From contig NZ_CP087164.1 of assembly GCF_021172045.1 (NCBI RefSeq), forward strand, positions 3,720,001 to 3,784,000: a stretch of 64,000 nt of DNA, written 5' to 3'. The translations under genes were made by a program, and so were the position numbers. Of this stretch, positions 1,045-24,720 are shown piece after piece. Below the pieces are notes generated by a model, which was not told where the DNA came from, searched no databases, and saw nothing but the letters and a program-made list of their open reading frames with translations. Numbering within the stretch: position 1 is the first letter of the stretch; every line of letters starts with the position of its first letter. This DNA comes from Capillimicrobium parvum (GTDB lineage: Bacteria > Actinomycetota > Thermoleophilia > Solirubrobacterales > Solirubrobacteraceae).

Positions 1045-1239
1045 GCGTCCGTTGGCTGGCGTCTCCGTGCCATCACGAGACGTTGTCGGCGGCTGCGGTG
1101 CGATGCCGAAGACCCTACGCCGCCGAATGGACAGATTTCCCTACGATTTCCCCAACAGTCGTTGGAGGCCCGATTCAGGCGCGAGTGTTGGAGCCAATTT
1201 TGGCTCAAACATCGACAATTTCGCCTCATTCCAGGCGAA

Positions 1240-1280
1240 TCATAGTCCGCGTGTCGGGGGTTCGAGTCCCTCCTCCGGCA
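1240..1280 (+). other. Duplicated tRNA 3' end (attachment-site remnant)
   Basis: The segment carries half of an anticodon loop with CAT, a TCCGC anticodon-stem arm, a GTGTC variable loop, a T-arm (GGGGG-TTCGAGT-CCCTC) and an acceptor strand CTCCGGC plus A. This is the 3' part of a tRNA, most like tRNA-Met(CAT). The 5' half is absent: upstream bases do not pair with the anticodon or acceptor strands. Such duplicated tRNA tails mark the distal att site of tRNA-integrated islands, and an integrase lies next to it. The intact tRNA should lie to the left, outside the window. tRNA identity is inferred. Confidence 0.75.
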
Positions 1281-1287
1281 TTGTGTG

Positions 1288-1333
1288 ATGTCTCGGGACA
1301 TGGGTCTCACATGTCTCGGGACATCGGTCTCAG
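1288..1333. repeat. Two tandem 23-bp repeats at an IS481-type end
   Basis: Two 23-bp units (1288-1310 and 1311-1333) share ATGTCTCGGGACAT followed by near-identical GGTCTCA. They sit just past the 3' end of the transposase remnant. Terminal TGTCTCGGGACAT-like motifs occur at ends of IS481-family elements in actinomycetes, so these are probably the element terminus. Confidence 0.6.
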
Positions 1334-1739
1334 TTCGGGGGCCCGGCCATCGGCCGGGCTCTGTGTTTTGGTTGCGCCAGTAGCTGCGGTTGGGGTCGAT
1401 GTGGTGGACGGAGAGCACTTCGCCGGTGGTGAGGTCGGTGACCGTGACGTGGTGGTCGTCGGCGAACGCGAGGACGCGTTTGCGGGCGTGGACGGTGCCG
1501 AGTCCGAGGTGGTGCATGCGGTCGGCGCAGCGGATCGTCATGCGGCCTTTGGGATCGAGTCGGTCGTAGCGCACGCGGTAGTGCCCTGGGGCGTGTCCGT
1601 TGCTGGCGGGGGCGGCCTTTGGGGTGGCGCGGTAGGCGTCGCCGGGGGTGCGCCTGTGCAGCGCTCGGTGCGGGCGGCGCTCGTTGTAGTGCTTGCGAAA
1701 CTCGTCTAGCTGGCGTTGGACGCTGCTCCGAACTGCTGA
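1334..1739 (-). pseudogene. IS481-family transposase, C-terminal fragment
   Basis: The minus frame reads LDEFRKHYNERRPHRALHRR, then a conserved tail with YDRLDPKGRMTIR, GTVHARKRVLAFADDHHVTV, HHIDPNRSYWRNQNTE and PGRWPGP. The first part is the end of the rve integrase catalytic core and the rest is the C-terminal domain typical of IS481-family transposases. Only about 135 residues remain. An in-frame TGA stands just upstream (about 1740), and the DNA-binding and DDE parts are missing. No native stop is evident before the terminal repeats. It is a dead remnant lodged beside the att site. Confidence 0.8.
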
Positions 1740-1865
1740 ACGTCAACCTTCTCGTCCAAAAGAAGAAGCGCGACTTATGCGTAGTCGTCCTAATCCGCCG
1801 TCGTACAGATGGCGGATGTGCCAGCGCGCGGCGCGCGGGACACTCAGTCGTGAGATGGAGAGGCC

Positions 1866-2303
1866 ATGACGACTCAGACGATCAAGCGCCCCGTCAAGCG
1901 GCGCGCCGCCGACCTGGAGGCGGTCTTCCCCGGCCGGTACCTCAGCGTGACAAGCTTCAAGCGGGACGGCACCGGCGTCGCGACGCCGGTGTGGTTCGTG
2001 GCAGACGGCAGGCGGCTGTTCGCCCTGACGGACCTGCACTCGCCGAAGGTCCAGCGCATGCGCCGCAACCCCCGAGTCCTGATCGCGGCGTGCCGCGTGA
2101 ACGGCAAACTGCGCAGCGAGCCGTTCCCGGCGCGCGTCGAGGTGCTGACCACGACCCCAGACCTGGAGCGGGTGCAGAAGCTATTGAGCGAGCGGTACAA
2201 GATCTCATACCGCCTCGTCATGCTGATGTACCGGCTCGGGCGCCGCCTCCGTGGCCAGAGCAGCGTCGCCGACGGCGCCGCGCTGGCGATCACCATCGAA
2301 TAG
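1866..2303 (+). CDS. PPOX-class (F420-dependent type) oxidoreductase family protein
   Basis: A 145-residue protein with a good ribosome site (GGAGAGG) before the ATG. The N-terminal strand pattern (GRYLSVTSFKRDGTGVATPV then WFVADGRRLFALTD) and the following KVQRMRRNPRVLIAACRVNG form the split-barrel flavin/F420-binding fold seen in small actinobacterial PPOX proteins. Family members bind F420, FMN or heme-like ligands and mostly have unknown substrates. The C-terminal third is basic and helical. It stands alone between two transposon remnants, so its context says little. Family assignment is good; cofactor and substrate are unknown. Confidence 0.75.
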   Translation: MTTQTIKRPVKRRAADLEAVFPGRYLSVTSFKRDGTGVATPVWFVADGRRLFALTDLHSPKVQRMRRNPRVLIAACRVNGKLRSEPFPARVEVLTTTPDLERVQKLLSERYKISYRLVMLMYRLGRRLRGQSSVADGAALAITIE

Positions 2304-2689
2304 CGCTGGCGGTCACGACGGCAGCCTGCCCCGGGCCCATCGCAACGGCTATGCGATGCGCCCAGCCGCTTTCGCCATCCATGCATCCGAGTTGCGAAGC
2401 TCATTGGTGCGTCACGGTCGGATTTGCCGCCGCAGATGAGCCAGCATCCATGGCTGAGAAGCGCGTGGTGCAGGGCGGCGGCGCGTGCCCCGGTGGATGC
2501 GGAGGCGGCGGAAGTGACGATGATCAAGCCGGCCGGCACTGGATTTCGGTCAACCGCTGATGGTCAAGACCCCCAACGCCACGCACGCAACGCTGATGAC
2601 GATGATCACGGCGCCGGTGATGATCGAGTCGGCGCGGCTAAGTCGGTGGTCGCCGAGCACAGTGGGATGAATCGTGCTGGGCTTGATGG
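2304..2689. other. Intergenic stretch, no gene supported
   Basis: I see no convincing gene. A minus-strand frame at 2550-2660 could encode a 36-residue peptide with one hydrophobic helix ending LGVLTISG, but it lacks a ribosome site and abuts the broken transposase. Confidence 0.4.
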
Positions 2690-3350
2690 AGGCTCTGGCG
2701 GGCGCATCAGCCGGCGCGTCTGGTCACAACCGATCGGGACCCCGGACCGTTTGGCGGCCTTCCACAGCTTCCGCGACCCGTAGACCTCATAGTTGGCCTT
2801 CCACAGCTTCACCAGCCGCAGGATCACCTCGGCGTCGCGTTGGGCACGCGCCGACGGCGCCCGGCCCCTGGCCGCGTAGTAGGTGCTCGGAGCCACCTGC
2901 AGGGTCTGGCAGATGGGCTCGACTCCGAGCCGCCGGCCGTCCACGAGATCGTCCTTGTTGGCGTCGATGAACGCGACTACCTGCGTTGCTGGCGGTCGAG
3001 CTCCGCCCCGAAGAACGTCGCCGCGCGGCGCAGAATCTCGTTGGCGCGGCGCAGCTCACGGCCGGACCTCCTGTTCGAGGTCCTTGACGCGCTCGGACTC
3101 GGTCGTGGTCACGCTCGGCCGCGCGCCGTCATCGATGTCGGCCTGCTTGACCCAGGTACGCACCGACTCGACCCCGTAGCTGAGCTGATCGGCGACCCTG
3201 CGACCGCCCCGTGCGTCATCCCCGTCTCGGCCTGCAACGAGCGCACCATCCGCACCGCCGCCTGCTGCTCCTCCATCGAATACCGACGCGTCGTCGGCTT
3301 GCCAGCTGTGCGCTCTCTCGACATGAACTCCGTCCTCGACTTTCCAAGGC
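2690..3350 (-). pseudogene. IS3-family transposase (OrfA/OrfB), frameshifted and truncated
   Basis: OrfA starts at ATG 3324 and reads KPTTRRYSMEEQQAAVRMVR. It then shifts frame near 3200 to continue RRVADQLSYGVESVRTWVKQ, and shifts again near 3060 before ELRRANEILRRAATFFGAEL, ending at a TAG. OrfB follows in the -1 frame (VVAFIDANKDDLVDGRRLGV, then PSTYYAARGR and NYEVYGSRKLWKAAKR) but breaks off after RRLMR near 2700, so the DDE domain is lost. The OrfA/OrfB step is the normal programmed shift of the family; the two shifts inside OrfA are damage. It interrupts the relaxase remnant to its right. Confidence 0.8.
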
Positions 3351-3915
3351 CAGAAGTCTCCAAGCACCCCAGGACGATTCACGTCGGCGCCCTGGGCGAG
3401 GTTGGCCGCCACGACGTGCGTGTGCAACTGCGGATCGCCGGCCCGCGAGGTGCGATGCCGATAGGCGCCCGCGATGAGCCCGCCGGCGTGCTCCTTGATC
3501 GCCCCGGCCGCGCCGCGGCGGACCTGCACCGCCTCACGCTCCAGATAGCCCAGCGCGTCACGGACCGCCGCCTCATGCCCGTCCACGACCGCCCGGCGAA
3601 CCTGCTCGCCGCCGGCCGCGAACAGCACCGACACCGACTTCGGCGCCGAGAACGTCAGATCAAACCCCTGCACCGCCAACCCGCCCCCCCAGCCGCAACG
3701 GCTCACCCGTCCGCGGCTGGCGCGCCTCGACCAACAGCGTCTCGAGCTCACCGTCGGCGACTTCGCCGTCCAGGCCCAGCGCCGCGGCACCAGCGCGACC
3801 CACTCCCCGTGCGGCTCTCCCTGGCCGTGTAGTAGTCCTCCCGGCCGCTCGCGACCGACTGCTCGTAGTAGCGCGCACTGTCGGCGCCGCGCGTGAGCTT
3901 GCCGATGCTCAACAT
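3351..3915 (-). pseudogene. MobF/TrwC-type conjugative relaxase, degraded fragment
   Basis: From ATG 3915 the frame begins MLSIGKLTRGADSARYYEQS, the standard start of MobF relaxases. The homology then jumps between frames: LGLDGEVADGELETLL near 3750, then GFDLTFSAPKSVSVLFAAGG near 3650, with the metal-binding histidine motif near PQLHTHVVAANL. It ends around 3360 where IS3 sequence begins. A functional relaxase needs more than 700 residues plus a helicase domain; both are missing. This is a trace of a former conjugative plasmid or integrative element. Confidence 0.8.
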
Positions 3916-4242
3916 CAGCCGCCCTCCACCGCGCCCTGCTCGATCCTCGCCGCCGACCCCCGCACCGCCGCCGCGACGTCCCCACCGACGCCTTCCCACC
4001 GCGCTACCGCGCAGCGGGCCCCCACAGGTGCACCCGCTTGGAAGCGGGGTGCGCGGCCCGTGTTGCTCCGGCGAGGCTTTCGACGCGGCGGGTACAACCC
4101 GGCGAATCGTTGCCGCCTCCTCTCGATGGCCGACCTCCCGCTCAGGCACCGCCATTTGCCGCGTTGACGGAGTCCTGGGTGGATGAAGGCGGGCTGTCCG
4201 GGACGTGGCTGCCGAACGACTCCAGCCGTCAGCAGGGAGCCA
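3916..4242. other. Flank of the relaxase remnant, no gene supported
   Basis: The interval is C-rich and low in complexity, with no frame that has family features. It separates the mobile-element debris from the catabolic island. Confidence 0.4.
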
Positions 4243-5640
4243 TCAGATGACGGGCTCGGGTTCCCCTTCCGGGCGCGGTGCCACGGCGCGCGACTTGACG
4301 AGCTCTGCGAACTCCGGGTCGTCGTGCGTGGGCAGATCCCAGTAGGCGACGTCCAGACCCGCGTCCTCCTGGGGCGCCTTGACGCGCAGCCCGATGCTCT
4401 TCTCGATCAGGAAGACGAGCACCAGTCCGGTGATGGCGGCGATGGCCAGCACGATCACGACACCCAGGAGCTGCATCCAGGGGGTGACCTCGGAGTTCTG
4501 AAAGGCGTACTTGCCCTCCGTGATGCCGAAGTAGCCGCCGACCTTCGTGTGCCACGCGACGAAGCCGCTCACGATCACGCCGTAGACGCCACCGAAGAGC
4601 GTCAGCGCCACGACCTTGCCCTCGTCCACGCGGATGCGGCGCATGAACAGGATCCCGAGATACACCGCCAGCGGGCCGAAGAACGCCACGATGAACGTCT
4701 CCCACGGATGGAAGACGTCAAAGGACGAGGCGCACGAGATGTAGCCGGCGACCGGACCCAGCAGCGCCATCGCGACGTTCCGCGTTCGATAGGCGAGGAT
4801 CGCCCCGCCGAGCGCGCCGGCGAAATACGACACGAACACGTTCGTCACGACGATCCCGATGCTCGAGTCGGCCATCGAGATGCCGAAGTAGCCCGAGCCG
4901 GGGATGAAGTAGCCGCAGCCCACGATCGCGAGCGGCAGGGCGAACAGGAAGATGCCGACGCCCGCGGCGGTCCAGCTGAGGTTGTGCGGCACCGGCGACC
5001 CACGCCTCGGACCCGCCCGCCACGCCATGATCAGCGTCCAGACCCCGACGAGGATGTACAGCGTGTAGACGCCGAGAAAGTCGTGCAGCCCGGCGTTCGT
5101 CAGCGGGCCCGCCGACCCCCACGTCAGATAGGCGACGAACGGCATGACGATGCCCCCGCCGACGGCGGCCAGGATGTAGGTGGCGGACGCCTTCACGCGC
5201 TCCAGGCCGGCGCTGTGGATGAGCGCGCCGAACACGGCGGCCCAGGTGAAGAAGAAGGCACCGAAGATCTGCAGGACATCGGCGCCCGGGACGAGCTTCG
5301 GATCGATGTTCTGGGCGAGCGCGCGGTAGTTGTCGCCGCCGAGCCACCATCCCTTCAGCGCCTCCCCGAGGGGATCGGGAACGCCGAATGCCTGGTTGAA
5401 CTGCCACTCCCAGATGCCGTAGCCGATCAGCATCATGGCGCCGCCGGCGATGAGCATGGCAAGAAGCTTCTGCACCCACGTGTCGACCAGGTTCTTCCGG
5501 CGGACGCCGCCGGCGTCGACGAACGCAATCGCGACCGCCGCGAGAAACAGCGCCGCGACCGCCACCCCGTAGAAGATGTCCTGTGCGAAGACGTCGATCG
5601 TCGTCTGATCCTTGAAGACGGCTGCAAGCAGGTTTGACAC
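4243..5640 (-). CDS. Amt-family transporter with twin-His to twin-Tyr substitution
   Basis: A 465-residue membrane protein with about 11 hydrophobic segments, starting at a GTG behind GAGGAG. Amt/MEP/Rh hallmarks are GGVRRKNLVDTWVQK (residues 44-58), the HDFLG segment (186-190) and a C-terminal tail with GLDVAYWDLPTH. By my alignment with E. coli AmtB the conserved pore aspartate is kept (D187), but both pore histidines (H168 and H318 of AmtB) correspond to tyrosines Y195 and Y353. That argues against ordinary ammonium conduction and for a divergent substrate. It is divergent from the DUF2254 gene and carries the ATTGNCCGAA motif about 96 bp upstream, linking it to the catabolic island. Possible roles are uptake of the island's amine or heterocyclic substrate, ammonium handling, or sensing. 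Confidence 0.75.
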   Translation of the reverse strand: MSNLLAAVFKDQTTIDVFAQDIFYGVAVAALFLAAVAIAFVDAGGVRRKNLVDTWVQKLLAMLIAGGAMMLIGYGIWEWQFNQAFGVPDPLGEALKGWWLGGDNYRALAQNIDPKLVPGADVLQIFGAFFFTWAAVFGALIHSAGLERVKASATYILAAVGGGIVMPFVAYLTWGSAGPLTNAGLHDFLGVYTLYILVGVWTLIMAWRAGPRRGSPVPHNLSWTAAGVGIFLFALPLAIVGCGYFIPGSGYFGISMADSSIGIVVTNVFVSYFAGALGGAILAYRTRNVAMALLGPVAGYISCASSFDVFHPWETFIVAFFGPLAVYLGILFMRRIRVDEGKVVALTLFGGVYGVIVSGFVAWHTKVGGYFGITEGKYAFQNSEVTPWMQLLGVVIVLAIAAITGLVLVFLIEKSIGLRVKAPQEDAGLDVAYWDLPTHDDPEFAELVKSRAVAPRPEGEPEPVI

Positions 5641-5735
5641 GGGTCTCCTCTCGACTCCCGGGCAAATGGTCGTTCCCTCGCCGCTCCTCTCCTTCGGAGC
5701 GCGGCAGATGATCGGTCGAGCCTCAGCACAGGGCT

Positions 5736-5753
5736 ATTGGCCGAAAGGACGAT
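5736..5753 (+). promoter_or_regulatory. Island motif copy upstream of the Amt-family gene
   Basis: ATTGGCCGAAAGGACGAT matches the copy before the monooxygenase operon (21524-21541) at 16 of 18 positions and sits at nearly the same distance from its start codon (about 96 versus 103 bp). It is an imperfect inverted repeat, probably an activator or repressor site. Confidence 0.55.
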
Positions 5754-7257: not shown

Positions 7258-8565
7258 CTAGGTCGCGACCATCTCACTGCCCGCCGCCGCGAGGAACTCG
7301 TAGAGCGGAAAGCCGGCGGCGAGCTCACGGCAGCGGGCCCGCAGCGCGTCCTTCGCCGGCTCGAACGCCGGTGACAGCGCGATGCGGATGATGTCGCCGA
7401 GCTCCGTGAACTCGGGGAGCCCGAAACCGCGGGTCGCCAAGGCCGGCGTGCCGAGCCGTAGCCCCGACGAGACCATTGGCGGCCGCGGATCGAACGGCAC
7501 CGTGTTGCGGTTGGCGGTGATGCCGATGTCGGCCAGTCGATCCTCGGCCTGGCGGCCGTCGATCTCGGTGTCGCGGAGATCGGCGACGACGAGGTGGACA
7601 TCGGTGCCGCCGGACCACACGCCCACGGCGTCGCCGCCGGCGAGGAGGCGTTCGGCGATGGCCCGCGCGCCCTCGAGCGTCCGCCGTTGGCGGTCGGCGA
7701 AGGCGCCCGACGCGGCGATTCGCAGCGCCACCGCCTTGCCGGCGATGACGTGCTCGAGCGGGCCGCCCTGCTGGCCCGGGAAGACGGCGGAGTCGATCTT
7801 CCTGGCCAGCGCCTCCCGGCAGATGATCATCCCTCCGCGGGCGCCGCCGAGCGTCTTGTGGATCGTCGTGGTCACGACGTCGGCGTACGGCACCGGGCTG
7901 GGATGGAGCCCGACCGCGACGAGCCCGGCGAAGTGCGACATGTCCACGAGGAGCATGGCCCCGCACTCGTCCGCGATCTCGCGGAACGCCGCGAAGTCGA
8001 TCCGCCGGGGGTATGCCGACCACCCCGCGACGATCAGCTTCGGACGACTGGCACGGGCGATGTCGCGAACCTCGTCGAGGTCGATGAGCCCGGTGTCCCG
8101 CCGCACCCCGTAGGGCACGATGCGATACAGACGCCCCGAGACATTCAGCCGCATCCCGTGCGTGAGGTGCCCGCCATGGTCGAGCGCCATGCCCATGAGC
8201 GTGTCGCCGGGGTCCAGGAGCGCGTGGTAGACCGCTGCGTTGGCCTGGGCGCCGGAGTGGGGTTGGACGTTGACGTGATCGCCGCCGAACAGCCCGCGTG
8301 CCCGGTCGATCGCCAGCTGCTCGGACACGTCGACCCACTCGCAGCCGCCGTAGTAGCGCTTGCCGGGGTAGCCCTCCGCGTACTTGTTCGTCAGGACGCT
8401 TCCCTGACACTCGAGGACGGCGCGCGGAACGACGTTCTCCGAAGCGATCATCTCGAGCGTCTCCTGCTGGCGCGTGAGCTCGCCGCGCAGGACGGCGGCG
8501 ATCTCGGGGTCCACCTCGGCGAGGGGCCGGTTCATCAGGTCGTGGGGAAGGTCGGTCAGGGCCAT
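7258..8565 (-). CDS. glyA: Serine hydroxymethyltransferase
   Basis: A 435-residue PLP enzyme of the usual length that interconverts glycine plus 5,10-methylene-THF and serine. Signatures are [47 protein letters not shown], and the PLP-lysine motif [10 protein letters not shown] (K237 from the chosen start). I chose ATG 8565 ([10 protein letters not shown]). A longer frame upstream covers the operators and has no family similarity. It is divergent from L-serine dehydratase with three operator-like sites in the 112-bp gap. In this setting it probably runs toward serine, to consume glycine. It is probably a dedicated paralogue beside a housekeeping copy elsewhere (not visible). Confidence 0.9.
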
Positions 8566-8584
8566 CAGCGCTCCGGCTCGTATC

Positions 8585-8597
8585 GTGGTCAGACCAC
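8585..8597. promoter_or_regulatory. PdhR/FadR-type operator 1 (glyA side)
   Basis: GTGGTCAGACCAC is a perfect palindrome of the TGGT-N3-ACCA form bound by FadR/PdhR-group GntR regulators. It lies 20 bp upstream of the glyA ATG, where a bound repressor would block transcription. Confidence 0.6.
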
Positions 8598-8625
8598 TCT
8601 GGGTCACGATCAGATCGGCGGTCAA

Positions 8626-8642
8626 GTGGACCTTCGGTCAAT
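8626..8642 (-). promoter_or_regulatory. Island motif copy between glyA and sdaA
   Basis: On the minus strand the site reads ATTGACCGAAGGTCCAC. It shares ATTGNCCGAA with the copies upstream of the Amt-family gene and the monooxygenase operon. It lies about 68 bp from glyA and 36 bp from sdaA. Confidence 0.5.
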
Positions 8643-8651
8643 TGCCCGACG

Positions 8652-8666
8652 ATTGGTTGGACCAAT
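8652..8666. promoter_or_regulatory. PdhR/FadR-type operator 2 (sdaA side)
   Basis: ATTGGTTGGACCAAT is a perfect 6-3-6 palindrome that fits the published E. coli PdhR consensus ATTGGT-N3-ACCAAT. It ends 11 bp before the sdaA ATG. Its first 13 bases recur in reverse complement just before gcvT (21626-21638). Confidence 0.65.
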
Positions 8667-8677
8667 ATGGTCCCGGC

Positions 8678-9994
8678 ATGACGGTTGGCGTCTTCGACCT
8701 GTTCCGCATCGGCATCGGCCCATCGAGCAGCCACACCGTGGGTCCTATGCGTGCGGCCCGCCACTTGGCGCAGCACCTCGCCGACGTCCCCGCCGAGGCG
8801 GTGCGGGTGATCCTCCACGGGTCCCTCGCCCTGACCGGCACCGGCCACGGCACGGATCGCGCCCTCGTGGCCGGACTCAACGGTGCCGACCCGGAGACCG
8901 TCGACCCGGCCTTCGTGCTGGACCTCGACCCCACACCGGAGCGCGTGCGGCTGGCCCACGGCACGGACGTCCGCTACCGGCTGGAGAAGCAGGCCCGCGG
9001 TGGGCCGCCGGGCCACCCGAACGCCATGCGCTTCGAGGTCACCGGCCACGATGGCCAGATCCTCCTCGCTCGCACCTATCGGTCCATCGGGGGTGGCTTT
9101 CTGACCGAGGACGGGGTGCCGCAGGCCGCGGAGCCGGTGTCGCTGCCCCTGCCTTTCACGACCGGCGAGGAGCTTGTCGCTCATGCGAGCGGGCTCGGCG
9201 GCATCGCCGCCGTCGCGGCCGCCAACGAGCATGCGCGTCGGCCCGAGGGCGACGTGACCGCAGGCCTGCGGCGCATCGCTCAGGCGATGAACGACTGCGT
9301 CGAGCGCGGGTTGCGGTCAGAGGGAGAGCTCCCCGGCGGTCTCCGCGTGCGGCGGCGCGCACCCGCGCTGCACCAGTCGCTGCTCACCGACAGGGGAGGG
9401 GCCCTGGAGGAGCTCGAGTGGGTCGCGCTCTGGGCGATGGCCGTCAACGAGGAGAACGCGGCCGGCGGACGCATCGTGACGGCACCGACCAATGGTGCCG
9501 CCGGCGTCCTCCCCGCCGTGCTGCGCTACGCGCAGCGCTTCGAAGGCATTGACGAGGCGGGCACCGAGCAGATGCTTCTCGCAGCGGCGGCCATCGGGGC
9601 GCTGATCAAGCGCAACGCCTCGATCTCCGGTGCCGAGGTCGGATGCCAGGGCGAAGTCGGCTCTGCCGCCGCGATGGCCGCGGCCGCGCTGGCCGAGGCG
9701 CTTGGCGGCAGCCCCGCCCAGGTCGCCAACGCCGCGGAGATCGCCCTCGAGCACCACCTCGGGATGACCTGCGACCCGATCGGCGGCCTCGTTCAGATCC
9801 CGTGCATCGAGCGCAACGCGCTCGGGGCCGGCAAGGCGATCGCTGCCGCCAAGCTCGCACTGCGCTCCGACGGTGTGCACGTCGTCTCCCTGGACAACGT
9901 CATCGATGCCATGCGCCGCACCGGGCACGACATGCACGAGAACTACAAGGAGACGGCCCGCGGCGGGCTGGCTGTCAGCGTCCCGGCCTGCTGA
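8678..9994 (+). CDS. sdaA: L-serine dehydratase, iron-sulfur type
   Basis: A 438-residue single-chain enzyme that deaminates L-serine to pyruvate and ammonia using a 4Fe-4S cluster. The beta domain opens with [19 protein letters not shown]. The alpha domain has [17 protein letters not shown], and the cluster cysteines sit in [20 protein letters not shown] and [17 protein letters not shown]. The end [19 protein letters not shown] is typical. ATG 8678 is chosen because the family starts at this residue and the upstream frame crosses the operators. It diverges from glyA, giving a glycine to serine to pyruvate route. It converges with the M20 amidase gene. Confidence 0.93.
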
Positions 9995-10090
9995 CCGGCA
10001 CCGTCCGCGCGCGGGCGGGACGTGCGTCGGGCCCTATCCCGGGGGTCACGGCCTGGCGCACGTCCGGTCCGCGCCCCGCCGCATGGCCGT

Positions 10091-12573: not shown

Positions 12574-12712
12574 GACTGTCATGTCCCTCTTCGCCTTGCC
12601 CTTCTCGTGACTTCGATCCGAACCGGTCGCCGGAGCCGGCGAACGCGGCTCGAGCATCGGGTGCTTCGCGCGTCCCGCGAGACGCCGTTCTTGGCCTGGC
12701 CCGGCCGGCGCC

Positions 12713-13828
12713 TCAGCCGGGACCGGACCGCCCGTGTGCGGACCGCGCCGTGGCGGACCGCAGGGCCGGCAGCGGCCATCGCTCCTGCGCGGGCGGCCCC
12801 CAGGCCGCCCGGGCGGCCTGCGGCGGACGCAGCAGGATGCCCTCGTCGATCGCGGTCCGGGTGGCCGCCGATCGGCTCGAGACGTCGAGCTTCTCCAGGA
12901 TGTGCTGGACGTGGGCCTTCACGGTCCGCGTCGTCACCACCAGCGTCGAGGCGATGTCGTCGTTGCGGGCACCGTCGGCCACGAGCGTGAGCACCTCGAG
13001 CTCGCGCCGGGAGAGCCCGTGCGGCAGGCGCTCGAACCGTGACAGGCCCACGACGATCCCGCCGTCGTGGCGGCGCACGCACCGGCACCGGTACCACTGC
13101 TTCACCACGCCCTCCCAGAAGAACTGGGTGGTCCACCAGTCGCGCTTGGACTCCATGATGAGCGCCAGCAGCTCGGTGAAGTACGCCACGAGCTGCCGAT
13201 CGTCCTGGTTGCGTGGCCGCACCACCTCGACCGGCGGCCGCGCCGCTGCGTCGGCGCCGCGGTCCGGCTCGATCTTGAGGATGTACTGCTCGCCGGCGAG
13301 CAGCTGCGAGGCGCGCCGGCTCTCCTCGACCGGATCGATCAGGCGGCCCAGGATGCGGGAGAGATAGGACATCAGCTGTCGCGCCTCGTCCGACGGGTTG
13401 CGCCGGTCGGTCGCCGACGAGTCGAGGAACCCGGTCAGGCGACCGCCCGTCGAGGCGAGCGGCGCCACCAGCCCCTCGACGAACCCGACCGGCAGGTAGA
13501 ACTCCGACATGCAGCGCAGCTCCATCGGCTTGAACGGCAGGTCGCGGACCCGCGCAGGCCATCCCGTCTTCGCCTGGGCGAACGGCGTGAGCACATCGAC
13601 CTCGAAGTCGGGGCCGTCGAGGTAGGCCATCAACGGGGCGGGGTAGCCGGTCGCATAGAGCTGCTGGCGCTGACCGGTCAGCGGGTCGAGCCCCCAGATC
13701 ATCCACCCGTCCACCCGCATGATCGGCTCGGCGGCGTGCAGGATCTCCGCGACCTTCTCCTCGACGTCGCAGCCGGAGGCCGCGATCTCCGCCGCTTCGG
13801 AAACGACATCGATGAGGCTCCTCGTCAT
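12713..13828 (-). CDS. GAF-like sensor, LuxR-type transcriptional regulator
   Basis: A 371-residue protein. The N-terminal region (about 20-190) resembles a GAF-like ligand-sensing domain, with a helical linker through residue 290. A clear LuxR helix-turn-helix follows: LSRRELEVLTLVADGARNDD then TTRTVKAHVQHILEKLDVSS. A proline-alanine-rich tail ends the protein. It has no receiver aspartate, so it is a one-component regulator. It lies inside the catabolic operon between the M24 and reductase genes and is the best local candidate to bind the ATTGNCCGAA motif; that link is inference. Confidence 0.82.
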   Translation of the reverse strand: MTRSLIDVVSEAAEIAASGCDVEEKVAEILHAAEPIMRVDGWMIWGLDPLTGQRQQLYATGYPAPLMAYLDGPDFEVDVLTPFAQAKTGWPARVRDLPFKPMELRCMSEFYLPVGFVEGLVAPLASTGGRLTGFLDSSATDRRNPSDEARQLMSYLSRILGRLIDPVEESRRASQLLAGEQYILKIEPDRGADAAARPPVEVVRPRNQDDRQLVAYFTELLALIMESKRDWWTTQFFWEGVVKQWYRCRCVRRHDGGIVVGLSRFERLPHGLSRRELEVLTLVADGARNDDIASTLVVTTRTVKAHVQHILEKLDVSSRSAATRTAIDEGILLRPPQAARAAWGPPAQERWPLPALRSATARSAHGRSGPG

Positions 13829-13913
13829 GTGCTCCTGACTCTATGGTCGGCCGACGCGGCCGCCATCGGGCCGACGGGCCGAGCCATGCCGTACGGGGTG
13901 TCGTGGTCCACCA

Positions 13914-16039: not shown

Positions 16040-16123
16040 CTCGGACGTCCTCCTTCGTTCATGGAAATCGACCGCTCGCCCTGCGCGGGGCGAGCGCCCG
16101 TCGTCTCGACGGTGGTTCTGCGG

Positions 16124-17293: not shown

Positions 17294-17790
17294 GGATCGC
17301 ACTCCACGTAGCGCCCGCACGCGTATGAGTACGCCGCGGTCAGGATGCACTCGAGCACGTACAGCTCGTGCTCGTCGCGCGGGGCGTAGAACACGAGGCT
17401 CTGCGGCGGGATCAGCCCGTAGAGCGCCAGGGGGTGGATCTGGCCCCACCCCTTCCCGAGCAGCGGCTCGGCCCATTCGGGGGCGAGCGCCGTGTGGACG
17501 CTGCCCTCGGCGCGGACGTGGGCGAACTCCATGCCCATGATGAAGGCCTCGCCCTGGCCCTCCGCCAGCCGATCGTCGAGGAGGAGGGCATTGGCGCCGT
17601 GGATCGTCTGCCTCACGGGCGCGACGGCGACCCCCGGCCACCCGCTGACGAGCGCCAGGATCTCCGCCTGGGCGGTCACCCGGTCCGCCTGCGTCGTCTG
17701 GGCGCACGGATACTGCCGGGCGATCTCCGCCCGGTCGCCCGGCCGCGAGGGCAGGCCGTGCAGGCACGACGGGGGGTCCTTCGTGATCAC
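17290..17790 (-). CDS. DUF5519 (luciferase-domain-like) protein
   Basis: About 166 residues. The conserved block runs from EILALVSGWPGVAVAPVRQT through GEAFIMGMEFAHVRAEGSVH and LAPEWAEPLLGKGWGQIHPL to YAPRDEHELYVLECILTAAY. This is the DUF5519 fold, annotated luciferase-like by distant similarity; its activity is unknown. I chose GTG 17790; a shorter start at VTAQAEI (about residue 43) is possible. It sits between the monooxygenase beta subunit and the QueG-like gene in the same operon, so it is probably a pathway or accessory protein. Confidence 0.6.
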   Translation of the reverse strand: MITKDPPSCLHGLPSRPGDRAEIARQYPCAQTTQADRVTAQAEILALVSGWPGVAVAPVRQTIHGANALLLDDRLAEGQGEAFIMGMEFAHVRAEGSVHTALAPEWAEPLLGKGWGQIHPLALYGLIPPQSLVFYAPRDEHELYVLECILTAAYSYACGRYVECDP

Positions 17791-17848
17791 GGCGTCGGTG
17801 ATCCGCCGACGACGAGCCGGTCCGAGCGCCACGCCCACGTCCGCCGTC

Positions 17849-18892
17849 CTAGACCGCCTGCGCGGTCTGCAGGCCGCACTCGGCGAGGAAGGCCTCGTAG
17901 CCGGCGGGAGCCACCTGCTCGCGCTCGACTCCGGACCCCGGCCACTGCCGATCTCCGAGCATCGCCGCCGCGGCCGCCACGGCCTCCTCGGTGCGCGGGC
18001 GCCACTTCTCGATCCACCCGTCGAGCACCTCGCGGTTCTCCGGCCGCTGCGAGACGGCGTAGGCGACGAGCGCCTTCGTCCAGTCCCTGCAGCGGTCGCT
18101 GTCCAGACGCGTGTCGTCCAGCGTGAGCGCGAGCTCCTCGTCAGCCTCGGCGCCGGCCGTCTGGCTGAGCGCGTCGATGAAGAGCCCGTCGTAGAGGGGC
18201 TTGACGACCAGGTTGAGCGCCGCGAAGCACTCGCCGAGGTCATACGCGACCAGAAGCTCCTCGAGGACCCTGCGCAGCGGCTGCCACGAGGGATCCTCCT
18301 CCCAGATGGTCCGCGCGGTCTGTGCCTCGGCCAGCTCCTCGCCGAACTCGAGGCTGAGCGACTTGGCGCGGTACGCGATGCGCTGGATTCGGCGCATCTC
18401 GTCGGCCGCCTGGAACTCGGCGCAGTTGGCGATGTACGAGCTCGGCGACAGCTGCGCGAGGTACATGGCCGCCATCTGCAGCACATGACACGAGAACCGC
18501 GACGTGAGGTACACGCGGCTGAGCACGTCGACCCAATCGGCGGCCAGCGTCGCATGCCGGGAGTCGCCTTCGAAGCGATCGACGATCCCGTCGAGGAACG
18601 TCTCGCGACGGTTCTGCTGCTCGACGTAGGAGTGATAGGTCAGGCGGTGTGGGTCGCGGAACCCGTTCCAGTCGTCGACGCGGAACGTCGACCCCTCGCG
18701 GTTCTTCAGGTACCACTGGTTGAGCGGCGCCGCGGGCGACAGCTCGAACGGCGCCGGGGTCTTGCCGTGGTGGTAGATGAGGTTGTGGGAGACCACCTCG
18801 TACTCGGAGGGCTTGCGCCGCGCCCCCGTCGAGAGCTGGCTCCACGTCTTCGGCGCCTTGCGCGCCGGGCGCGACGTCTCCGCGCTGCTCAT
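17849..18892 (-). CDS. tmoE: Soluble di-iron monooxygenase beta subunit (TmoE-like)
   Basis: A 347-residue protein with the ferritin-like fold of hydroxylase beta subunits. Signatures are TWSQLSTGARRKPSEYEVVS at the start, the WYLKNREGS segment near residue 60, FRDPHRLTYHSYVEQQNRRE, and a helical core with AEFQAADEMRRIQRIAYRAK. Beta subunits pair with alpha in the (alpha-beta-gamma)2 hydroxylase and do not bind the catalytic irons. Length fits T4MO TmoE (about 327). It overlaps the effector gene by 4 bp. Confidence 0.88.
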   Translation of the reverse strand: MSSAETSRPARKAPKTWSQLSTGARRKPSEYEVVSHNLIYHHGKTPAPFELSPAAPLNQWYLKNREGSTFRVDDWNGFRDPHRLTYHSYVEQQNRRETFLDGIVDRFEGDSRHATLAADWVDVLSRVYLTSRFSCHVLQMAAMYLAQLSPSSYIANCAEFQAADEMRRIQRIAYRAKSLSLEFGEELAEAQTARTIWEEDPSWQPLRRVLEELLVAYDLGECFAALNLVVKPLYDGLFIDALSQTAGAEADEELALTLDDTRLDSDRCRDWTKALVAYAVSQRPENREVLDGWIEKWRPRTEEAVAAAAAMLGDRQWPGSGVEREQVAPAGYEAFLAECGLQTAQAV

Positions 18893-19185
18893 TTCGTCTC
18901 CTCCAGGTACCAGATGATCTCGTCGTCGCTGACCTTGATGCGGCCCGCGAACGACGGCATGACGCTCTCGAACGCCGAGATCCGCAGCTCGCCGCCGAGC
19001 TCCTCGTCCAGCGACGCCTGCGTCAGCCGGCAGGACGTCGGCAGGCCGATGCGAACGTAGGCGCCCCGATCCTCGAACTTCGGCGCCTGACCGTTGTCGG
19101 TCGCGATCGCGCGCGCGACGGCCTCGGCCACGCGCTGGTCGCTGATGATCGGCCCGACGTATCTCGTCTTCTGCTCAGCAGGCAT
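18889..19185 (-). CDS. tmoD: Monooxygenase effector/coupling protein (TmoD/MmoB family)
   Basis: A 98-residue protein of the family size. VGPIISDQRVAEAVARAIAT and YVRIGLPTSCRLTQASLDEE match the effector fold, followed by MPSFAGRIKVSDDEIIWYLE. Effector proteins bind the hydroxylase near the di-iron site and gate oxygen activation and product release; they have no cofactor. The ATG shares one base with the stop of the ferredoxin gene. Confidence 0.87.
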   Translation of the reverse strand: MPAEQKTRYVGPIISDQRVAEAVARAIATDNGQAPKFEDRGAYVRIGLPTSCRLTQASLDEELGGELRISAFESVMPSFAGRIKVSDDEIIWYLEETK

Positions 19186-19550
19186 CAGCCATTGCTCCTC
19201 GTCGATGAATGTCCGACGGCCTCGCCGGCGGACCGGCCGATCCACACCACGTCGTCCTCGATGCGCACCTGCCTCTGCGCAAGGCACGTGTTGTCCGGAT
19301 TGACGCCGGCGCCGGACCGGGCGTCGAACTCCCACAGGTGCGCCGGACACACGAGCTTGTCCTCCTCGAGGTAGCCCTCGGCCAGGGACGTCCCCTGGTG
19401 CGGACACGAGGACAGGAACGCACTGATGTGACCGCCCTCGAGGTGCACGACGATGAGCTCCTCGCCGTCGACGGTCACCGGCATCAGCTCGCCTTCCCAC
19501 AGGTCTTCGAGGTCGACCGCCTTGACCCAGCGATCCTCGTCCACTGACAC
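19185..19550 (-). CDS. tmoC: Rieske [2Fe-2S] ferredoxin (TmoC-like)
   Basis: A 121-residue protein with the Rieske ligands C49-x-H51 (CPHQGTSL) and C68-x2-H71 (CPAHLWEFD). It carries electrons from the ferredoxin reductase to the hydroxylase. Spacing of the ligands matches T4MO TmoC with a shift of four residues. The TmoC-like end GVNPDNTCLAQRQVRIEDD is followed by a short extra tail. It lies 9 bp after the TmoB-like gene. Confidence 0.92.
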   Translation of the reverse strand: MSVDEDRWVKAVDLEDLWEGELMPVTVDGEELIVVHLEGGHISAFLSSCPHQGTSLAEGYLEEDKLVCPAHLWEFDARSGAGVNPDNTCLAQRQVRIEDDVVWIGRSAGEAVGHSSTRSNG

Positions 19551-19559
19551 CGCCGGCTC

Positions 19560-19871
19560 CTACCTTGAGACCTTGATCTCGACGTAGTCGAGCCACCCGA
19601 TGCCGACGTCCCGCGCCAGGGCGTCGAGCGGCTGCTCCTCGCCCTTGAAGATGAGCCGGAGGTCCCGGCCCTCGTCGGGGACGCGGATGCCGGAGACGTA
19701 GTCGGCCGCGGTGGTGCAGATGTCACGCACCGTCGCTTCCGGGTCGACGTTGACGTGGTGGACCAGGAAGTCGTCGCCGAAGATGAAGCCGATCGGCAGG
19801 ATCCCGGGGTTGCCTTCGGGGGGCGCGCCGGCGACGCGCGCCTCCCCGAGCCCCGTCGGGGCGTCTGACAT
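19560..19871 (-). CDS. tmoB: Hydroxylase gamma-like subunit (TmoB-like)
   Basis: A 103-residue protein with a proline/glycine-rich N-terminal 25 residues and a ubiquitin-like fold typical of TmoB/TouB: GDDFLVHHVNVDPEATVRDI, then DLRLIFKGEEQPLD and WLDYVEIKVSR. These subunits form the third chain of the four-component toluene monooxygenase hydroxylase. Sequence conservation is low in this family; position between alpha and ferredoxin genes is part of the evidence. Slightly longer than T4MO TmoB (84). Confidence 0.75.
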   Translation of the reverse strand: MSDAPTGLGEARVAGAPPEGNPGILPIGFIFGDDFLVHHVNVDPEATVRDICTTAADYVSGIRVPDEGRDLRLIFKGEEQPLDALARDVGIGWLDYVEIKVSR

Positions 19872-19909
19872 TGGTGCTGTTCCTTCCTGCTTGCTGGAGT
19901 CGGGGGCGG

Positions 19910-21421
19910 CTAGGCGGCGATCGCGCCGGTGGGCAGGGCGGGCTCGCGATCCGTGGCCCAGCGGTACCGCGCGGCGTCGTCACCCGCGATGTCAGGCGTG
20001 ATCCCCATGTACTCGAGGATGCCCTCGATCGTCGGCGGCTGGATGTCGCCCATGATCAGCCGGTCGATGAGGGTCTTCGTGCCGGCGTAGCGCTCCAGGT
20101 TCTGGTCGAAGATCCACTGGCACGGCTCCGAGCAGAAGGAGTACCTGCGGTCGCCGTGCACCGACTGGCGCGGATCGCAGTGCGACGTCGTCCCCGGGAT
20201 CTTGAAGACCGGGAGGTGGCACGTGTTGCAGAGGATGGGCAGCGTCTTGCCGAAGCTCGCGTCGACCTTGTCGGCGCGCACGTTCTCGCCGATGGTGTCC
20301 CAGAGCTTGCCGAACTTCTTCTCCCAGCCCGGGTACTTGCCCTCGAGCCACTCGCGCTCCGCGTCGGAGACTCCTGCGTCCGGGTGCCACCACACGGTGT
20401 TGCGGAAGTACCAGATCCCCGCGTGCTCGGAGTGGTGGTACCAGTCGAGCTCGTCGAGGAACTGCTCCCAGTACCACGGCTTCTCCAGGCCGATGTCCTC
20501 GAGCTGATCCATGAACTGCCGGATGATCCACTCCTCCATGAACTCCTTGAAGGACATCGTCCGGTGCTCGAGCGGCGTCCAGTAGTCCATCGAGGGCCCG
20601 GTGAGCGTGGCGAACAGGTGCCACGCTCGCCAGAACGACACGTCGATCAGGTTCTGCGCGAGCTCCTTCTGCCCCGTCTCGAGGAGCAGCTTGAGCGTGG
20701 GCTCGCCCTGCTGGGCGTGGCGCGCCTCATCGGTCTGGATGCTCGAGATCAGCGCGCCGAACTCGACGTCGCCCATCTCCATCGCGTCCGCCGCCATGCC
20801 GATGAACTGCAGGTTCGTGAAGCCGGTCTCGAAGGTGAACGTGAGCTGGATCGCGGTCGAGATGACGTCCCTCGCCATGAACAGCTCGTCGTTGTGGCTC
20901 TGCGCGGCGATGATCGCCCAGTTGCCCGTGTGGTAGGCCTTGTGGGCCCAGTCGAACTGCTGGTCCTTGTCGAGCAGCGAGTGGGCGACGCGCAGCTGGA
21001 TCTGGACATGGCGCATCTCGTCGAGCGCGCCGAACAGCGCCATGTTGCGCCATGCGGCCGCGAGGCCGAAGCGGCCCATGCGAGACTCCGCGAGCGTCGA
21101 CTGCCCCTCGGAGACCGTGACGGCGCCGAAGTGCGCCTTGATCGCGCCCTTCCAGCCCTCGTCGAGCTGATCGAACAGGTGCGAGCGGGCGATGGCGGCG
21201 CCGACGGCGGCCACGCCGGCGTCCTTGTCGACCTGGTTGTACACGTACTCGCGGTAGGACAGCTTGTACGGCTCGTCCCACGACCACCACGTGGTGGGCG
21301 ACGTGTCACCCATGGGACCCACGAGCGCCGGCGGGAACGCCTCGTCGTGCGTGACGTACTTCAGCGTCCAGTTCATGTCGCGTGCGATGTCGTACCAGTC
21401 AGATCGCCGCAAACGGGGCAT
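19910..21421 (-). CDS. tmoA: Soluble di-iron monooxygenase alpha subunit (T4MO TmoA-like)
   Basis: A 503-residue oxygenase subunit, starting at ATG 21421 behind GAGGGAGG. It matches TmoA of toluene-4-monooxygenase over its length (SDWYDIARDMNWTLKYVT at the start). All di-iron ligands are present: E105, E135, H138, E198, E232 and H235, plus T202 and Q229 near the active site, each offset by one from T4MO. In the pocket, T4MO I100 and G103 correspond to V101 and S104, so substrate preference may differ. A C-terminal YHS-like segment (about 405-465) carries cysteines (LCNTCHLPV, SFCSEPCQWI) that T4MO lacks. It heads the long operon, about 100 bp from an ATTGNCCGAA site. The likely reaction is O2-dependent hydroxylation or epoxidation of an aromatic or heteroaromatic ring. 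Confidence 0.93.
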   Translation of the reverse strand: MPRLRRSDWYDIARDMNWTLKYVTHDEAFPPALVGPMGDTSPTTWWSWDEPYKLSYREYVYNQVDKDAGVAAVGAAIARSHLFDQLDEGWKGAIKAHFGAVTVSEGQSTLAESRMGRFGLAAAWRNMALFGALDEMRHVQIQLRVAHSLLDKDQQFDWAHKAYHTGNWAIIAAQSHNDELFMARDVISTAIQLTFTFETGFTNLQFIGMAADAMEMGDVEFGALISSIQTDEARHAQQGEPTLKLLLETGQKELAQNLIDVSFWRAWHLFATLTGPSMDYWTPLEHRTMSFKEFMEEWIIRQFMDQLEDIGLEKPWYWEQFLDELDWYHHSEHAGIWYFRNTVWWHPDAGVSDAEREWLEGKYPGWEKKFGKLWDTIGENVRADKVDASFGKTLPILCNTCHLPVFKIPGTTSHCDPRQSVHGDRRYSFCSEPCQWIFDQNLERYAGTKTLIDRLIMGDIQPPTIEGILEYMGITPDIAGDDAARYRWATDREPALPTGAIAA

Positions 21422-21523
21422 CTGTGACCTCCCTCTCGATCCATGCTGGAGCTTCAATGACCTCCCGCTGCGTTCGCCCGCGGGAACCGGCCACTAGCTA
21501 ATCGCGGCCCCCGGGCCGGCGCC

Positions 21524-21541
21524 ATTGTCCGAAAGGACCAT
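21524..21541 (+). promoter_or_regulatory. Island motif copy upstream of the monooxygenase operon
   Basis: ATTGTCCGAAAGGACCAT is a near-perfect inverted repeat (ATKGTCC-N4-GGACCAT) in the 234-bp gap between tmoA and gcvT. It matches the site before the Amt-family gene at 16 of 18 bases. Confidence 0.6.
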
Positions 21542-21574
21542 CCTCCGGCCGGAGCGGCGGATCAGGGCTCGGCA

Positions 21575-21592: not shown

Positions 21593-21624
21593 TGACGCCC
21601 CTCGGCCGCTGCCATACGGTCGTT

Positions 21625-23134: not shown

Positions 23135-24112
23135 TCACGCCTCCGCGGCCGCCGGCCGGCGCTCACTGCGCGCCTGTCGCTCATGGAAGATCGCGCCAAG
23201 GAAGTCCACGACGAGGCGTGTGGCCAGCAGCGCGGTCGTTCCCGTGGGGTCATACAGCGGGTTGACCTCTACCAGGTCGAAGCCGACGATCGGCCCCTTC
23301 TTCGCGACACCCCGCAGCAGGTCCCGCGCCTGGTGATAGAGCAGGCCGCCCGGCTCGGGCGTTCCGGCGCCCGGCGCGATCGACGGGTCCATCGAATCGA
23401 TGTCGAACGTCAGGTAATAGGGCATCTCGGGGATCTGGTCGAGGACCCAGTCGACCCCGATGGAGCGCACCTCGTCGGAGGTGATGATCACGTTTCCGCG
23501 GGCGATCGAGTCGGAGTAGTCCTTCTCGCCCAGCATGAGGCCGCGCATGCCGATCTGCACGAACTTCGTGACGTTCGGGCAGTTGCGCGCGACGTTGATC
23601 ATCGGGCTCCCGTGCGTCAGATCGCTCTCATAGAACGTGAAGACGTCGGCGTGCGTGTCGATCTGGATGATCCCGATCTCGCCGATGTCGGAGAAGGCCT
23701 GGACCACTGGGTACGTGATCGAGTGATCGCCGCCGACCGAGATCGGTAGCGCACCGCGCGAGAGCATCGTCTTGATGCTCTGCGTCATGCGGTTGTGGTT
23801 GGCCTCCAGCGCGAGCGGCTGGATCGGCACGTCGCCGCAGTCGACGATGTTCACGCCGCGCAGGATCGTCTGGCGGAGCTCGATGTCGTAGTAGCCCTCG
23901 CCGGGCAGGTACTGCTCGTACAGGGACGACTGCTCACGCAGTGCCCGTGGACCGAAGCGCGTGCCGGGACGGTTCATGGTCCCCTCGTCGAACGGGATGC
24001 CGATGACGCCGACATCGGCGTCGAGGTAGTCGAGGTCGGCGCAAACGGGAGCTTTCAGGAAGCTGGCGATGCCGACGTACGGCATGTGGCTCGCGCTCTT
24101 GGCGGCGGTCAT
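23135..24112 (-). CDS. Ureohydrolase (agmatinase/guanidino-acid hydrolase family)
   Basis: A 325-residue binuclear-manganese hydrolase. All six metal ligands are visible: H130 (SVGGDHSITYP), D152, H154 and D156 (IQIDTHADVFTF), D237 and D239 (TFDIDSMDPSIAPG). The family splits guanidino or formimidoyl groups to give urea or formamide plus an amine; members include agmatinase, guanidinobutyrase, guanidine hydrolase and formiminoglutamase. The sequence does not fix the substrate. A ribosome site (GAAAGGA) precedes ATG 24112. Placed next to gcvTH and the hydrolytic operon, a glycine-releasing substrate such as a guanidino- or formimino-glycine is an attractive guess. Confidence 0.85.
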   Translation of the reverse strand: MTAAKSASHMPYVGIASFLKAPVCADLDYLDADVGVIGIPFDEGTMNRPGTRFGPRALREQSSLYEQYLPGEGYYDIELRQTILRGVNIVDCGDVPIQPLALEANHNRMTQSIKTMLSRGALPISVGGDHSITYPVVQAFSDIGEIGIIQIDTHADVFTFYESDLTHGSPMINVARNCPNVTKFVQIGMRGLMLGEKDYSDSIARGNVIITSDEVRSIGVDWVLDQIPEMPYYLTFDIDSMDPSIAPGAGTPEPGGLLYHQARDLLRGVAKKGPIVGFDLVEVNPLYDPTGTTALLATRLVVDFLGAIFHERQARSERRPAAAEA

Positions 24113-24257: not shown

Positions 24258-24302
24258 CTAGATGAGTCGTTCCACGGCCGACCCGCGGAACGACTCATCT
24301 AG
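24258..24302. terminator. Perfect 16-bp hairpin at the end of the small gene
   Basis: CTAGATGAGTCGTTCC (24258-24273) and its exact complement (24287-24302) flank a 13-nt loop. The outer arm contains the stop codon of the small minus-strand gene. It lacks a T-run, so it may be a strong transcript end or processing structure rather than a classic terminator. Confidence 0.55.
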
Positions 24303-24638
24303 AGCGAGGGGATCTCGATCTCGCCGGCCCCCTCGAGGAAGCCGACGAAGGTGATGGGTCCGGCCGGCGGCCTTCGCCGCGAGATCGGTGGACATGTAGT
24401 TGAGGAGCATCGGCACCTTGCCACCGATGCCCGCCCACTTGCCCGTTTCCGACGTGAACTCGTTCTCCATCTCGTCGACGCCGACGATGCGCATCTTCAG
24501 GTAGTGGGACGTGCCGTCCACGGCGAGACGCACGCTGAACAGCCCCTCGTACGCCGCCTGCAGCTGTGCGTCGTCGACTCGCACCGGGGTGCTCCAGTCC
24601 GCGCTGCCGCCGGCGGCGATCTCGACACGTCTTGCCAT
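24299..24638 (-). CDS. Small unknown protein of the island, with an apparent frameshift
   Basis: From ATG 24638 the frame reads MARRVEIAAGGSADWSTPVR, then GLFSVRLAVDGTSHYLKMRI and KWAGIGGKVPMLLNYMSTDL. Near 24360 the protein-like composition moves to another frame and ends PITFVGFLEGAGEIEIPSL before TAG at 24299. One base lost in a GC run would give a single protein of about 112 residues. I do not recognise the family; it looks like a compact beta-rich domain. An ATTGGCCGA-type motif lies 66 bp upstream, as for other island genes. It could be a real frameshift, a sequencing error, or recoding. Confidence 0.5.
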
Positions 24639-24703
24639 ACGACTCTTCTGAGTGAACAGGGTGGTGCCCGGCGATTTCTCGCACACGCCCCCCGTGCCCG
24701 GCA

Positions 24704-24720
24704 ATTGGCCGATCGGCCGA
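24704..24720 (+). promoter_or_regulatory. Island motif-like site upstream of the small gene
   Basis: ATTGGCCGATCGGCCGA shares ATTGGCCGA with the site before the Amt-family gene and contains its own palindrome (TCGGCCGATCGGCCGA-like). It lies 66 bp from the start codon. Confidence 0.4.

What the first reader, a model, noticed from the sequence alone, without database searches (positions are those of the whole stretch)
4243..5640. Amt-family transporter with both pore histidines replaced by tyrosine
By alignment to AmtB, the conserved Asp is kept (D187) but the twin His (H168, H318) appear as Y195 and Y353. Twin-His is central to ammonium conduction. A twin-Tyr form tied by promoter motif to a heterocycle island could carry another substrate or act as a sensor.
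Basis: partly seen in the sequence, partly recalled or inferred. Interest (0 to 1): 0.7.

Follow-up and report, generated by a model that had tools for sequence, protein, structure and literature searches.

The report
Ammonium-channel relative lacking both pore histidines
This soil-bacterium gene makes a membrane channel of the ammonium-transporter family in which the two histidines thought essential for moving ammonium are both gone, and its relatives sit beside genes for breaking down methylated amines and pyridine-type compounds, so it probably carries a different nitrogen compound, or carries ammonium by a different mechanism.

Summary
The gene is real and intact (4243-5640, minus strand, 465 aa, PF00909, AlphaFold pLDDT 93, best PDB match Amt at Z about 45). 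Both twin-His are absent, but not as described. Y195 does replace AmtB H168. Y353 does not replace H318: the H318 column is T347 (L348 in one profile alignment), and Y353 lies six residues on, where canonical Amts that keep both histidines have Trp. The correct statement is 'Tyr at His1, small or hydrophobic at His2', with the Phe gate F215 also lost. This is an old clade: Tyr at His1 in 62 of 62 intact sequences; His2 is Phe (32/33) in subclade I and Ala/Gly/Thr in subclade II. Subclade I lies in trimethylamine/dimethylamine/methylamine gene clusters. Subclade II, which includes the window, lies mostly beside 2,5-dihydroxypyridine degradation genes. None sits next to GlnK, unlike most canonical Amts. 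In a sister genome the window's orthologue adjoins the island's ureohydrolase, with GmaS/MgsABC nearby, and shares a promoter motif with the island. Best reading: a catabolic amine transporter that cannot use the twin-His deprotonation route. The substrate is not shown; ammonium release is the main rival. 'Amt in methylamine clusters' is already published; I found no report that their pore lacks both histidines.

The parts
4243..5640 (-). Amt-family gene without twin-His (465 aa, GTG start)
   Evidence: PF00909 5.6e-31; pLDDT 93, pTM 0.91; Z 42-46 to bacterial Amt structures; dN/dS about 0.19
5056..5058 (-). codon of Tyr195, at the AmtB H168 position
   Evidence: Tyr in 62 of 62 intact clade members, His in 14 of 14 canonical; same pairing
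4600..4602 (-). codon of Thr347, at the AmtB H318 position (Ala/Gly in most of subclade II, Phe in subclade I)
   Evidence: one search gives the neighbour L348 instead
5080..5082 (-). codon of Asp187, the conserved AmtB D160 position
   Evidence: D in 62 of 62 and in 14 of 14 canonical
5733..5750 (-). promoter-like motif GTCCTTTCGGCCAATAGC, about 95 bp upstream of the Amt start
21521..21538 (-). same motif upstream of the diiron monooxygenase operon
   Evidence: also upstream of the G003 monooxygenase
24701..24718 (-). same motif upstream of the small orphan gene and the ureohydrolase
24258..24638 (-). small orphan protein (126 aa); its homologue lies just upstream of the Amt gene in G003
   Evidence: 34% identity to L024:8433-8900; no Pfam or NCBIfam family
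23135..24112 (-). ureohydrolase of the agmatinase family; the 82% identical orthologue lies directly downstream of the Amt gene in G003
17849..21376 (-). diiron (toluene-type) monooxygenase operon, motif-linked island genes
   Evidence: PF02332 and TmoB; G003 orthologue of the alpha subunit 89%
12713..13828 (-). LuxR-family regulator, candidate reader of the motif (inference)
   Evidence: GerE domain; homologues behind the same motif in G000 and G003

Best explanation
The gene encodes a member of a distinct, wide-spread clade of the Amt/Mep/Rh fold that has lost the twin-His relay (Tyr at His1; Phe, Ala, Gly or Thr at His2) and half of the Phe gate (F215 replaced by V/I/L/A), while keeping the periplasmic Asp and Trp. 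It most likely works as an inner-membrane transporter of an organic amine or amine-like cation (for the clade's best-supported part, mono- or dimethylammonium), switched on with the catabolic genes for that compound and not controlled by GlnK. With no twin-His it cannot use the split 'deprotonate, then conduct NH3 and H+ separately' mechanism shown for AmtB. The remodelled, probably wider pore would pass the substrate whole or as neutral amine. Shown: gene, fold, residues, clade, neighbourhoods, motif. Inferred: substrate, direction, and the change of mechanism.
For: Clade and pore: Tyr at His1 in 62/62, His2 lost in all, F215 lost in 61 of 62, D160 and W148 kept; the clade splits from canonical Amts with full support. 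Fold. Context: subclade I lies beside Tmm, Tdm, DmmABC, MgsABC/GmaS and Mgd (29 of 45 loci at 35% identity or more; several of the rest are short contigs). Seven or so of these loci also carry a separate Amt of another kind (the AMT2 matches at 45-72% identity; PonAMT2 has both histidines), so the Tyr form does not simply duplicate it. Subclade II lies beside NicX, NicD-type deformylase, maleamate amidase, maleate isomerase and XDH-type subunits (26 of 35 loci). Window orthologue in G003: Amt then ureohydrolase, then GmaS (TIGR03105 above cut-off) and MgsABC; the window genome has MgsABC-GmaS at two other places. GlnK is next to 10 of the canonical Amts fetched and next to no clade member. Literature: AmtB twin-His variants lose selectivity and switch to channel-like passage of hydrated cation (PMC9040831).
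Against: Engineered single His-to-Ala AmtB does not move methylamine and the double mutant is inactive (PMC3647058), so loss of His alone does not make a methylamine carrier. In the pyridine-linked loci the likely substrates are weak bases or neutral and may need no carrier. No uptake data. The window island itself has no Dmm gene and its pathway substrate is unknown. No coordinates of the model were available, so pore width was not measured.
Confidence: 0.5

Rival explanations
1. An ammonium conduit for catabolism: it moves ammonium, mostly outward, released when methylamines, maleamate or ureohydrolase products are broken down in excess of need, and losing the twin-His makes it a freely reversible, ungated channel.
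For: Ammonium release is the one step shared by most of the linked pathways (methylamine N-demethylation, maleamate to maleate). No GlnK, so it would not be shut by high ammonium. Simulated double-His AmtB loses directionality (PMC3647058). Methylamine-degrading Rhodobacteraceae feed ammonium to diatoms and carry amt in these clusters (PMC7574528).
Against: The double His-to-Ala variant of AmtB fails to support ammonium-dependent growth (PMC3647058). Neutral ammonia leaves cells unaided. The clade keeps the periplasmic capture residues W148 and D160, which suits uptake.
Confidence: 0.28
2. A broad, poorly selective monovalent cation or small-solute pore used to take up whichever polar nitrogen compound the neighbouring genes break down (methylated amines, hydroxypyridines, guanidino compounds).
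For: One pore type is linked to chemically different pathways within one clade, and even within one genome (window copy and L021 copy). Twin-His variants of AmtB become unselective (PMC9040831).
Against: A leaky cation channel would cost the membrane potential. Subclade-specific fixed residues (Phe at His2 in I, Ala in II; position 162 Phe against Asp or aliphatic) point to distinct selectivities.
Confidence: 0.12
3. A transceptor: the protein senses an amine or ammonium and signals to the LuxR-type regulators of the island.
For: Sensor Amts exist (Ks-Amt5, Sd-Amt1) and Sd-Amt1 heads the structure list, though tied with AmtB.
Against: No fused signalling domain. Clade members lie next to enzymes, with no shared signalling partner, and GlnK is absent.
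Confidence: 0.05

Closest known systems
AmtB of E. coli (canonical bacterial ammonium transporter, TIGR00836)
   Same: Fold (Z about 44), Asp160, Trp148, mostly Phe107 in the clade, C-terminal LRV...GLD stretch
   Different: No twin-His, no Phe215 or Trp212, no adjacent GlnK, about 22% identity, far below the TIGR00836 cut-off
'amt' genes of TMA/DMA/MMA and gmaS-mgsABC clusters (Rhodobacteraceae, Methylophaga, Paracoccus; called methylamine transporter in one carbamate degrader, PMC8292978)
   Same: Subclade I members from Methylophaga, Paracoccus and Rhodobacteraceae found here are such genes; same clade as the window protein
   Different: Some of the published ones may be the His-type Amt that lies in the same clusters (L107 carries both). 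Published papers read here do not mention the pore residues. The window protein is in subclade II
Fungal Mep1/Mep3 (Glu at first His)
   Same: A natural departure from twin-His
   Different: Keeps the second His and is an ammonium transporter
TIGR03644 marine-subtype Amt
   Same: Weak profile match (56 bits)
   Different: Cut-off is 514 bits

Membership tests
Amt/Mep/Rh superfamily (PF00909) | Pfam Ammonium_transp above gathering score | tested here: met
   108.1 bits against 23.2
Amt/Mep/Rh superfamily (PF00909) | Amt fold | tested here: met
   Z 42-46 to AmtB, Af-Amt1 and Sd-Amt1 over 345-387 residues
Canonical ammonium transporter (TIGR00836) | Score above the curated subfamily cut-off | tested here: not met
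   127 bits against 343.3
Canonical ammonium transporter (TIGR00836) | Twin-His in the pore (AmtB H168, H318) | tested here: not met
   Y195 and T347 (or L348); whole clade lacks both
Canonical ammonium transporter (TIGR00836) | Phe gate F107/F215 | tested here: not met
   W133 and A238 in the window; F107 mostly kept, F215 lost in 61 of 62 clade members
Canonical ammonium transporter (TIGR00836) | Asp160 and Trp148 at the periplasmic binding region | tested here: met
   D187 and W174, invariant in the clade
Canonical ammonium transporter (TIGR00836) | Paired GlnK/P-II gene | tested here: not met
   Found beside 10 canonical Amts and beside no clade member; the only locus hit (L068) lies next to that locus's other Amt
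Canonical ammonium transporter (TIGR00836) | Selective ammonium transport | not testable with these tools
   needs uptake or electrophysiology
Sensor Amt (Ks-Amt5, Sd-Amt1 type) | Fused cytoplasmic signalling domain | tested here: not met
   Protein ends about 30 residues after the conserved C-terminal stretch
TIGR03644 marine subtype | Score above cut-off | tested here: not met
   56.5 bits against 514
Methylamine-cluster Amt (subclade I here) | Member of the same Tyr-at-His1 clade | tested here: met
   Tree split with full support
Methylamine-cluster Amt (subclade I here) | Phe at the second His position | tested here: not met
   T347 in the window; Phe in 32 of 33 subclade I members
Methylamine-cluster Amt (subclade I here) | Transports methylammonium | not testable with these tools
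   no assay; not shown in the papers read

The most novel reading that the evidence does not exclude
A natural branch of the Amt fold has given up the twin-His deprotonation mechanism altogether and become a family of organic-amine transporters, one subclade for methylated amines and another for products or substrates of pyridine- and guanidino-type catabolism, with its histidine chemistry either abandoned or moved to the clade-specific invariant H142.
Probability: 0.4. Interest if true: 0.78.

Novelty: new variant of a known kind. Interest (0 to 1): 0.62.

Why it matters
How Amt proteins select ammonium has been argued for 20 years, mostly from mutants of AmtB, and reviews treat the twin-His as nearly universal (one paper names Glu at the first His as the only common natural variant). 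A natural clade with neither histidine, fixed across phyla and tied to amine catabolism, gives a ready test of whether the twin-His is needed for transport at all or only for ammonium selectivity. It could also name the missing carrier for methylated amines in marine and soil methylotrophs, and warns that many 'ammonium transporter' annotations may be wrong on substrate.

Tried and rejected
Second site as Tyr353: rejected by two alignment methods and by canonical sequences that have Trp in that column. Chance or pseudogene: rejected (62 of 62 conservation, dN/dS 0.19). Clade tied to the diiron monooxygenase: rejected, the monooxygenase occurs in 2 of 61 relatives. Window genome using dimethylamine monooxygenase: no DmmC match in G000 or G003; that search had no positive control genome. 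Other histidines at the two positions: none. Paper searches for a reported loss of twin-His in methylamine-cluster Amts found nothing, but the library holds open papers only.

Full report
WHAT IS THERE. The ORF at 4243-5640(-) is a 465-residue protein with a clear PF00909 match (108 bits, cut-off 23.2) that falls far short of the curated ammonium-transporter model TIGR00836 (127 bits against 343). AlphaFold with 55 relatives gives pLDDT 93. Bacterial Amt structures match at Z 42-46. The window is part of a 5.95-Mb single-contig genome; its same-genus sister G003 is a Solirubrobacterales MAG (RYN_254). That genome holds three Amt genes: this one, a second of the same kind (60% identity), and a canonical AmtB with GlnK beside it.

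PORE RESIDUES. MAFFT with E. coli AmtB, canonical relatives and clade members, and hhalign of the clade profile against a canonical profile, agree on D187 = D160, W174 = W148 and Y195 = H168. They also agree that Y353 = V324. H318 pairs with T347 in MAFFT and with L348 in hhalign, where a one-residue gap is placed differently. In 10 of 14 canonical proteins the Y353 column is Trp, and in all 14 the H318 column is His, so Y353 cannot be the second histidine. In 62 intact clade sequences Tyr at His1 is fixed. His2 is Phe in 32 of 33 of subclade I and Ala (25), Gly (3) or Thr (1) in subclade II. F215 of the gate is V/I/L/A in all but one, and W212 is L/V/A/I in all. H142, H186, D42 (with 3 exceptions and one gap), K342 and N267 are clade-specific or nearly fixed. 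H142 does not occur in canonical proteins and could be a relocated functional histidine, which I could not test without coordinates.

CLADE AND DISTRIBUTION. A genome-contig scan found 74 loci in Solirubrobacterales, Conexibacter, Pseudonocardia, Geodermatophilus, Modestobacter and Amycolatopsis, and in Methylophaga, Methylonatrum, Methylohalomonas, Methylophilaceae, Paracoccus and relatives. In the window's class 20 of 399 genomes have it. A tree of 62 rows separates 54 clade members from 8 canonical Amts with full support, and splits the clade into subclade I (99) and II (95). The window sits in II with its G003 orthologue (quick method; long branches at the canonical side, so the root is not claimed).

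NEIGHBOURHOODS. Subclade I: in Paracoccus sp. MA the gene follows DmmA, DmmB and DmmC(DUF3445), with Tmm, Tdm, MgsABC, GmaS and Mgd near by; similar in P. alcaliphilus and Ponticoccus and in 29 of 45 loci. About seven loci hold a second Amt of another kind; the one examined (PonAMT2) has both histidines. Subclade II: 26 of 35 loci hold at least two of NicX (PDB 7cn3, E 7e-91), maleamate amidase (4l07), maleate isomerase (4fq7), NicD-type deformylase (4l0c), XDH-type subunits and PPDK-like proteins; the Amt gene is usually divergent from, or inside, this cluster. The window genome's second copy is inside such an operon (L021). L033-L035 form another type, with aldehyde dehydrogenase, cupin, PNPOx and GATase1-like genes. 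GlnK lies next to 10 canonical Amts but next to no clade member.

THE WINDOW COPY AND THE ISLAND. In the window the gene is 17.5 kb from a ureohydrolase and some 12-16 kb from a diiron monooxygenase operon. In the sister genome G003 the orthologue (81% identity) lies behind a small orphan gene and directly before the ureohydrolase (82% to the window's), with GmaS, MgsABC, formamidase, P450 and a GAF-LuxR regulator around it. The window genome has MgsABC-GmaS twice elsewhere. Of the relatives, only G000 and G003 have the monooxygenase. A motif GNYCNWTCGGMCAMTNG has five sites in each genome: in G000 before the Amt gene, the monooxygenase operon, the orphan gene, a LuxR paralogue, and one unrelated; in G003 before the Amt gene, the orphan gene beside it, the monooxygenase, a LuxR gene, and another orphan-gene copy. 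I built the motif from these upstream regions, so its presence there is partly by construction; the independent evidence is its rarity elsewhere, the two paralogue sites that were not used in building it, and the chance expectation (0 of 100 shuffles reach the window count).

HOW IT MAY WORK. AmtB splits ammonium, sending NH3 through a hydrophobic pore and H+ along water wires bridged by the twin-His; twin-His variants turn it into an unselective channel (PMC9040831; PMC10433425). Single His-to-Ala variants stop methylamine, and the double variant stops both (PMC3647058). A natural clade without either histidine must therefore have compensating changes; the loss of F215 and W212 and the clade-specific fixed residues are candidates. 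Its contexts argue for a role in catabolism of organic nitrogen. I prefer an amine transporter (0.5), with ammonium release or recapture as the main rival (0.28). Direction and substrate are not shown.

WHAT IS KNOWN. Amt genes in methylamine clusters are published: 'amt' repeatedly co-occurs in TMA/DMA/MMA clusters (PMC7574528), amtB is drawn in the marine clusters (PMC5520151), and a gmas-mgsABC-amt operon is said to encode a methylamine transporter (PMC8292978). PMC3647058 states that the only common natural variant of the twin-His is Glu at the first His in fungi. I found no paper on the pore of this clade, nor on Amt genes beside NicX clusters, within an open-access library.

Noticed in passing
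window 1-4100: Remnants of mobile elements (integrase-like, IS3-type transposase and relaxase-like fragments, named by eye) just downstream of the Amt gene; the region may have been rearranged, which fits the Amt gene being apart from the ureohydrolase here but adjacent in G003.
   Followed up: no
window 24258-24638; L024:8433-8900; L155:967-1434: Small orphan protein (126-155 aa) with no Pfam or NCBIfam match, always behind the same promoter-like motif.
   Followed up: partly
L042, L044, L045, L053 and similar loci: Actinobacterial cluster with a split PPDK/PEP-synthase-like pair, XDH-type FAD and Fe-S subunits, CoxG, NicX, deformylase, maleamate amidase and maleate isomerase; looks like a hydroxypyridine pathway with an unusual dikinase-linked first step.
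   Followed up: partly
L033, L034, L035: Same Amt clade next to aldehyde dehydrogenase, EutQ-like cupin, PNPOx-like, GATase1-like and LacI genes: a third, unidentified catabolic context.
   Followed up: no
window 7258-24112: Island with diiron monooxygenase, ferredoxin reductase, carbamoylase-type M20, M24 hydrolase, PuuE-like deacetylase, GcvT/GcvH, SHMT, serine dehydratase and ureohydrolase; suggests breakdown of an N-heterocycle or guanidino compound to glycine and C1 units.
   Followed up: partly
L160:8032-12341 and L161:9087-13755: Two MgsABC-GmaS operons (N-methylglutamate type) in the window's genome, away from the window.
   Followed up: partly
clade alignment, window residue 142: His142 on the third helix is invariant in the clade (62 of 62) and absent in canonical Amts; possible relocated pore histidine.
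   Followed up: no
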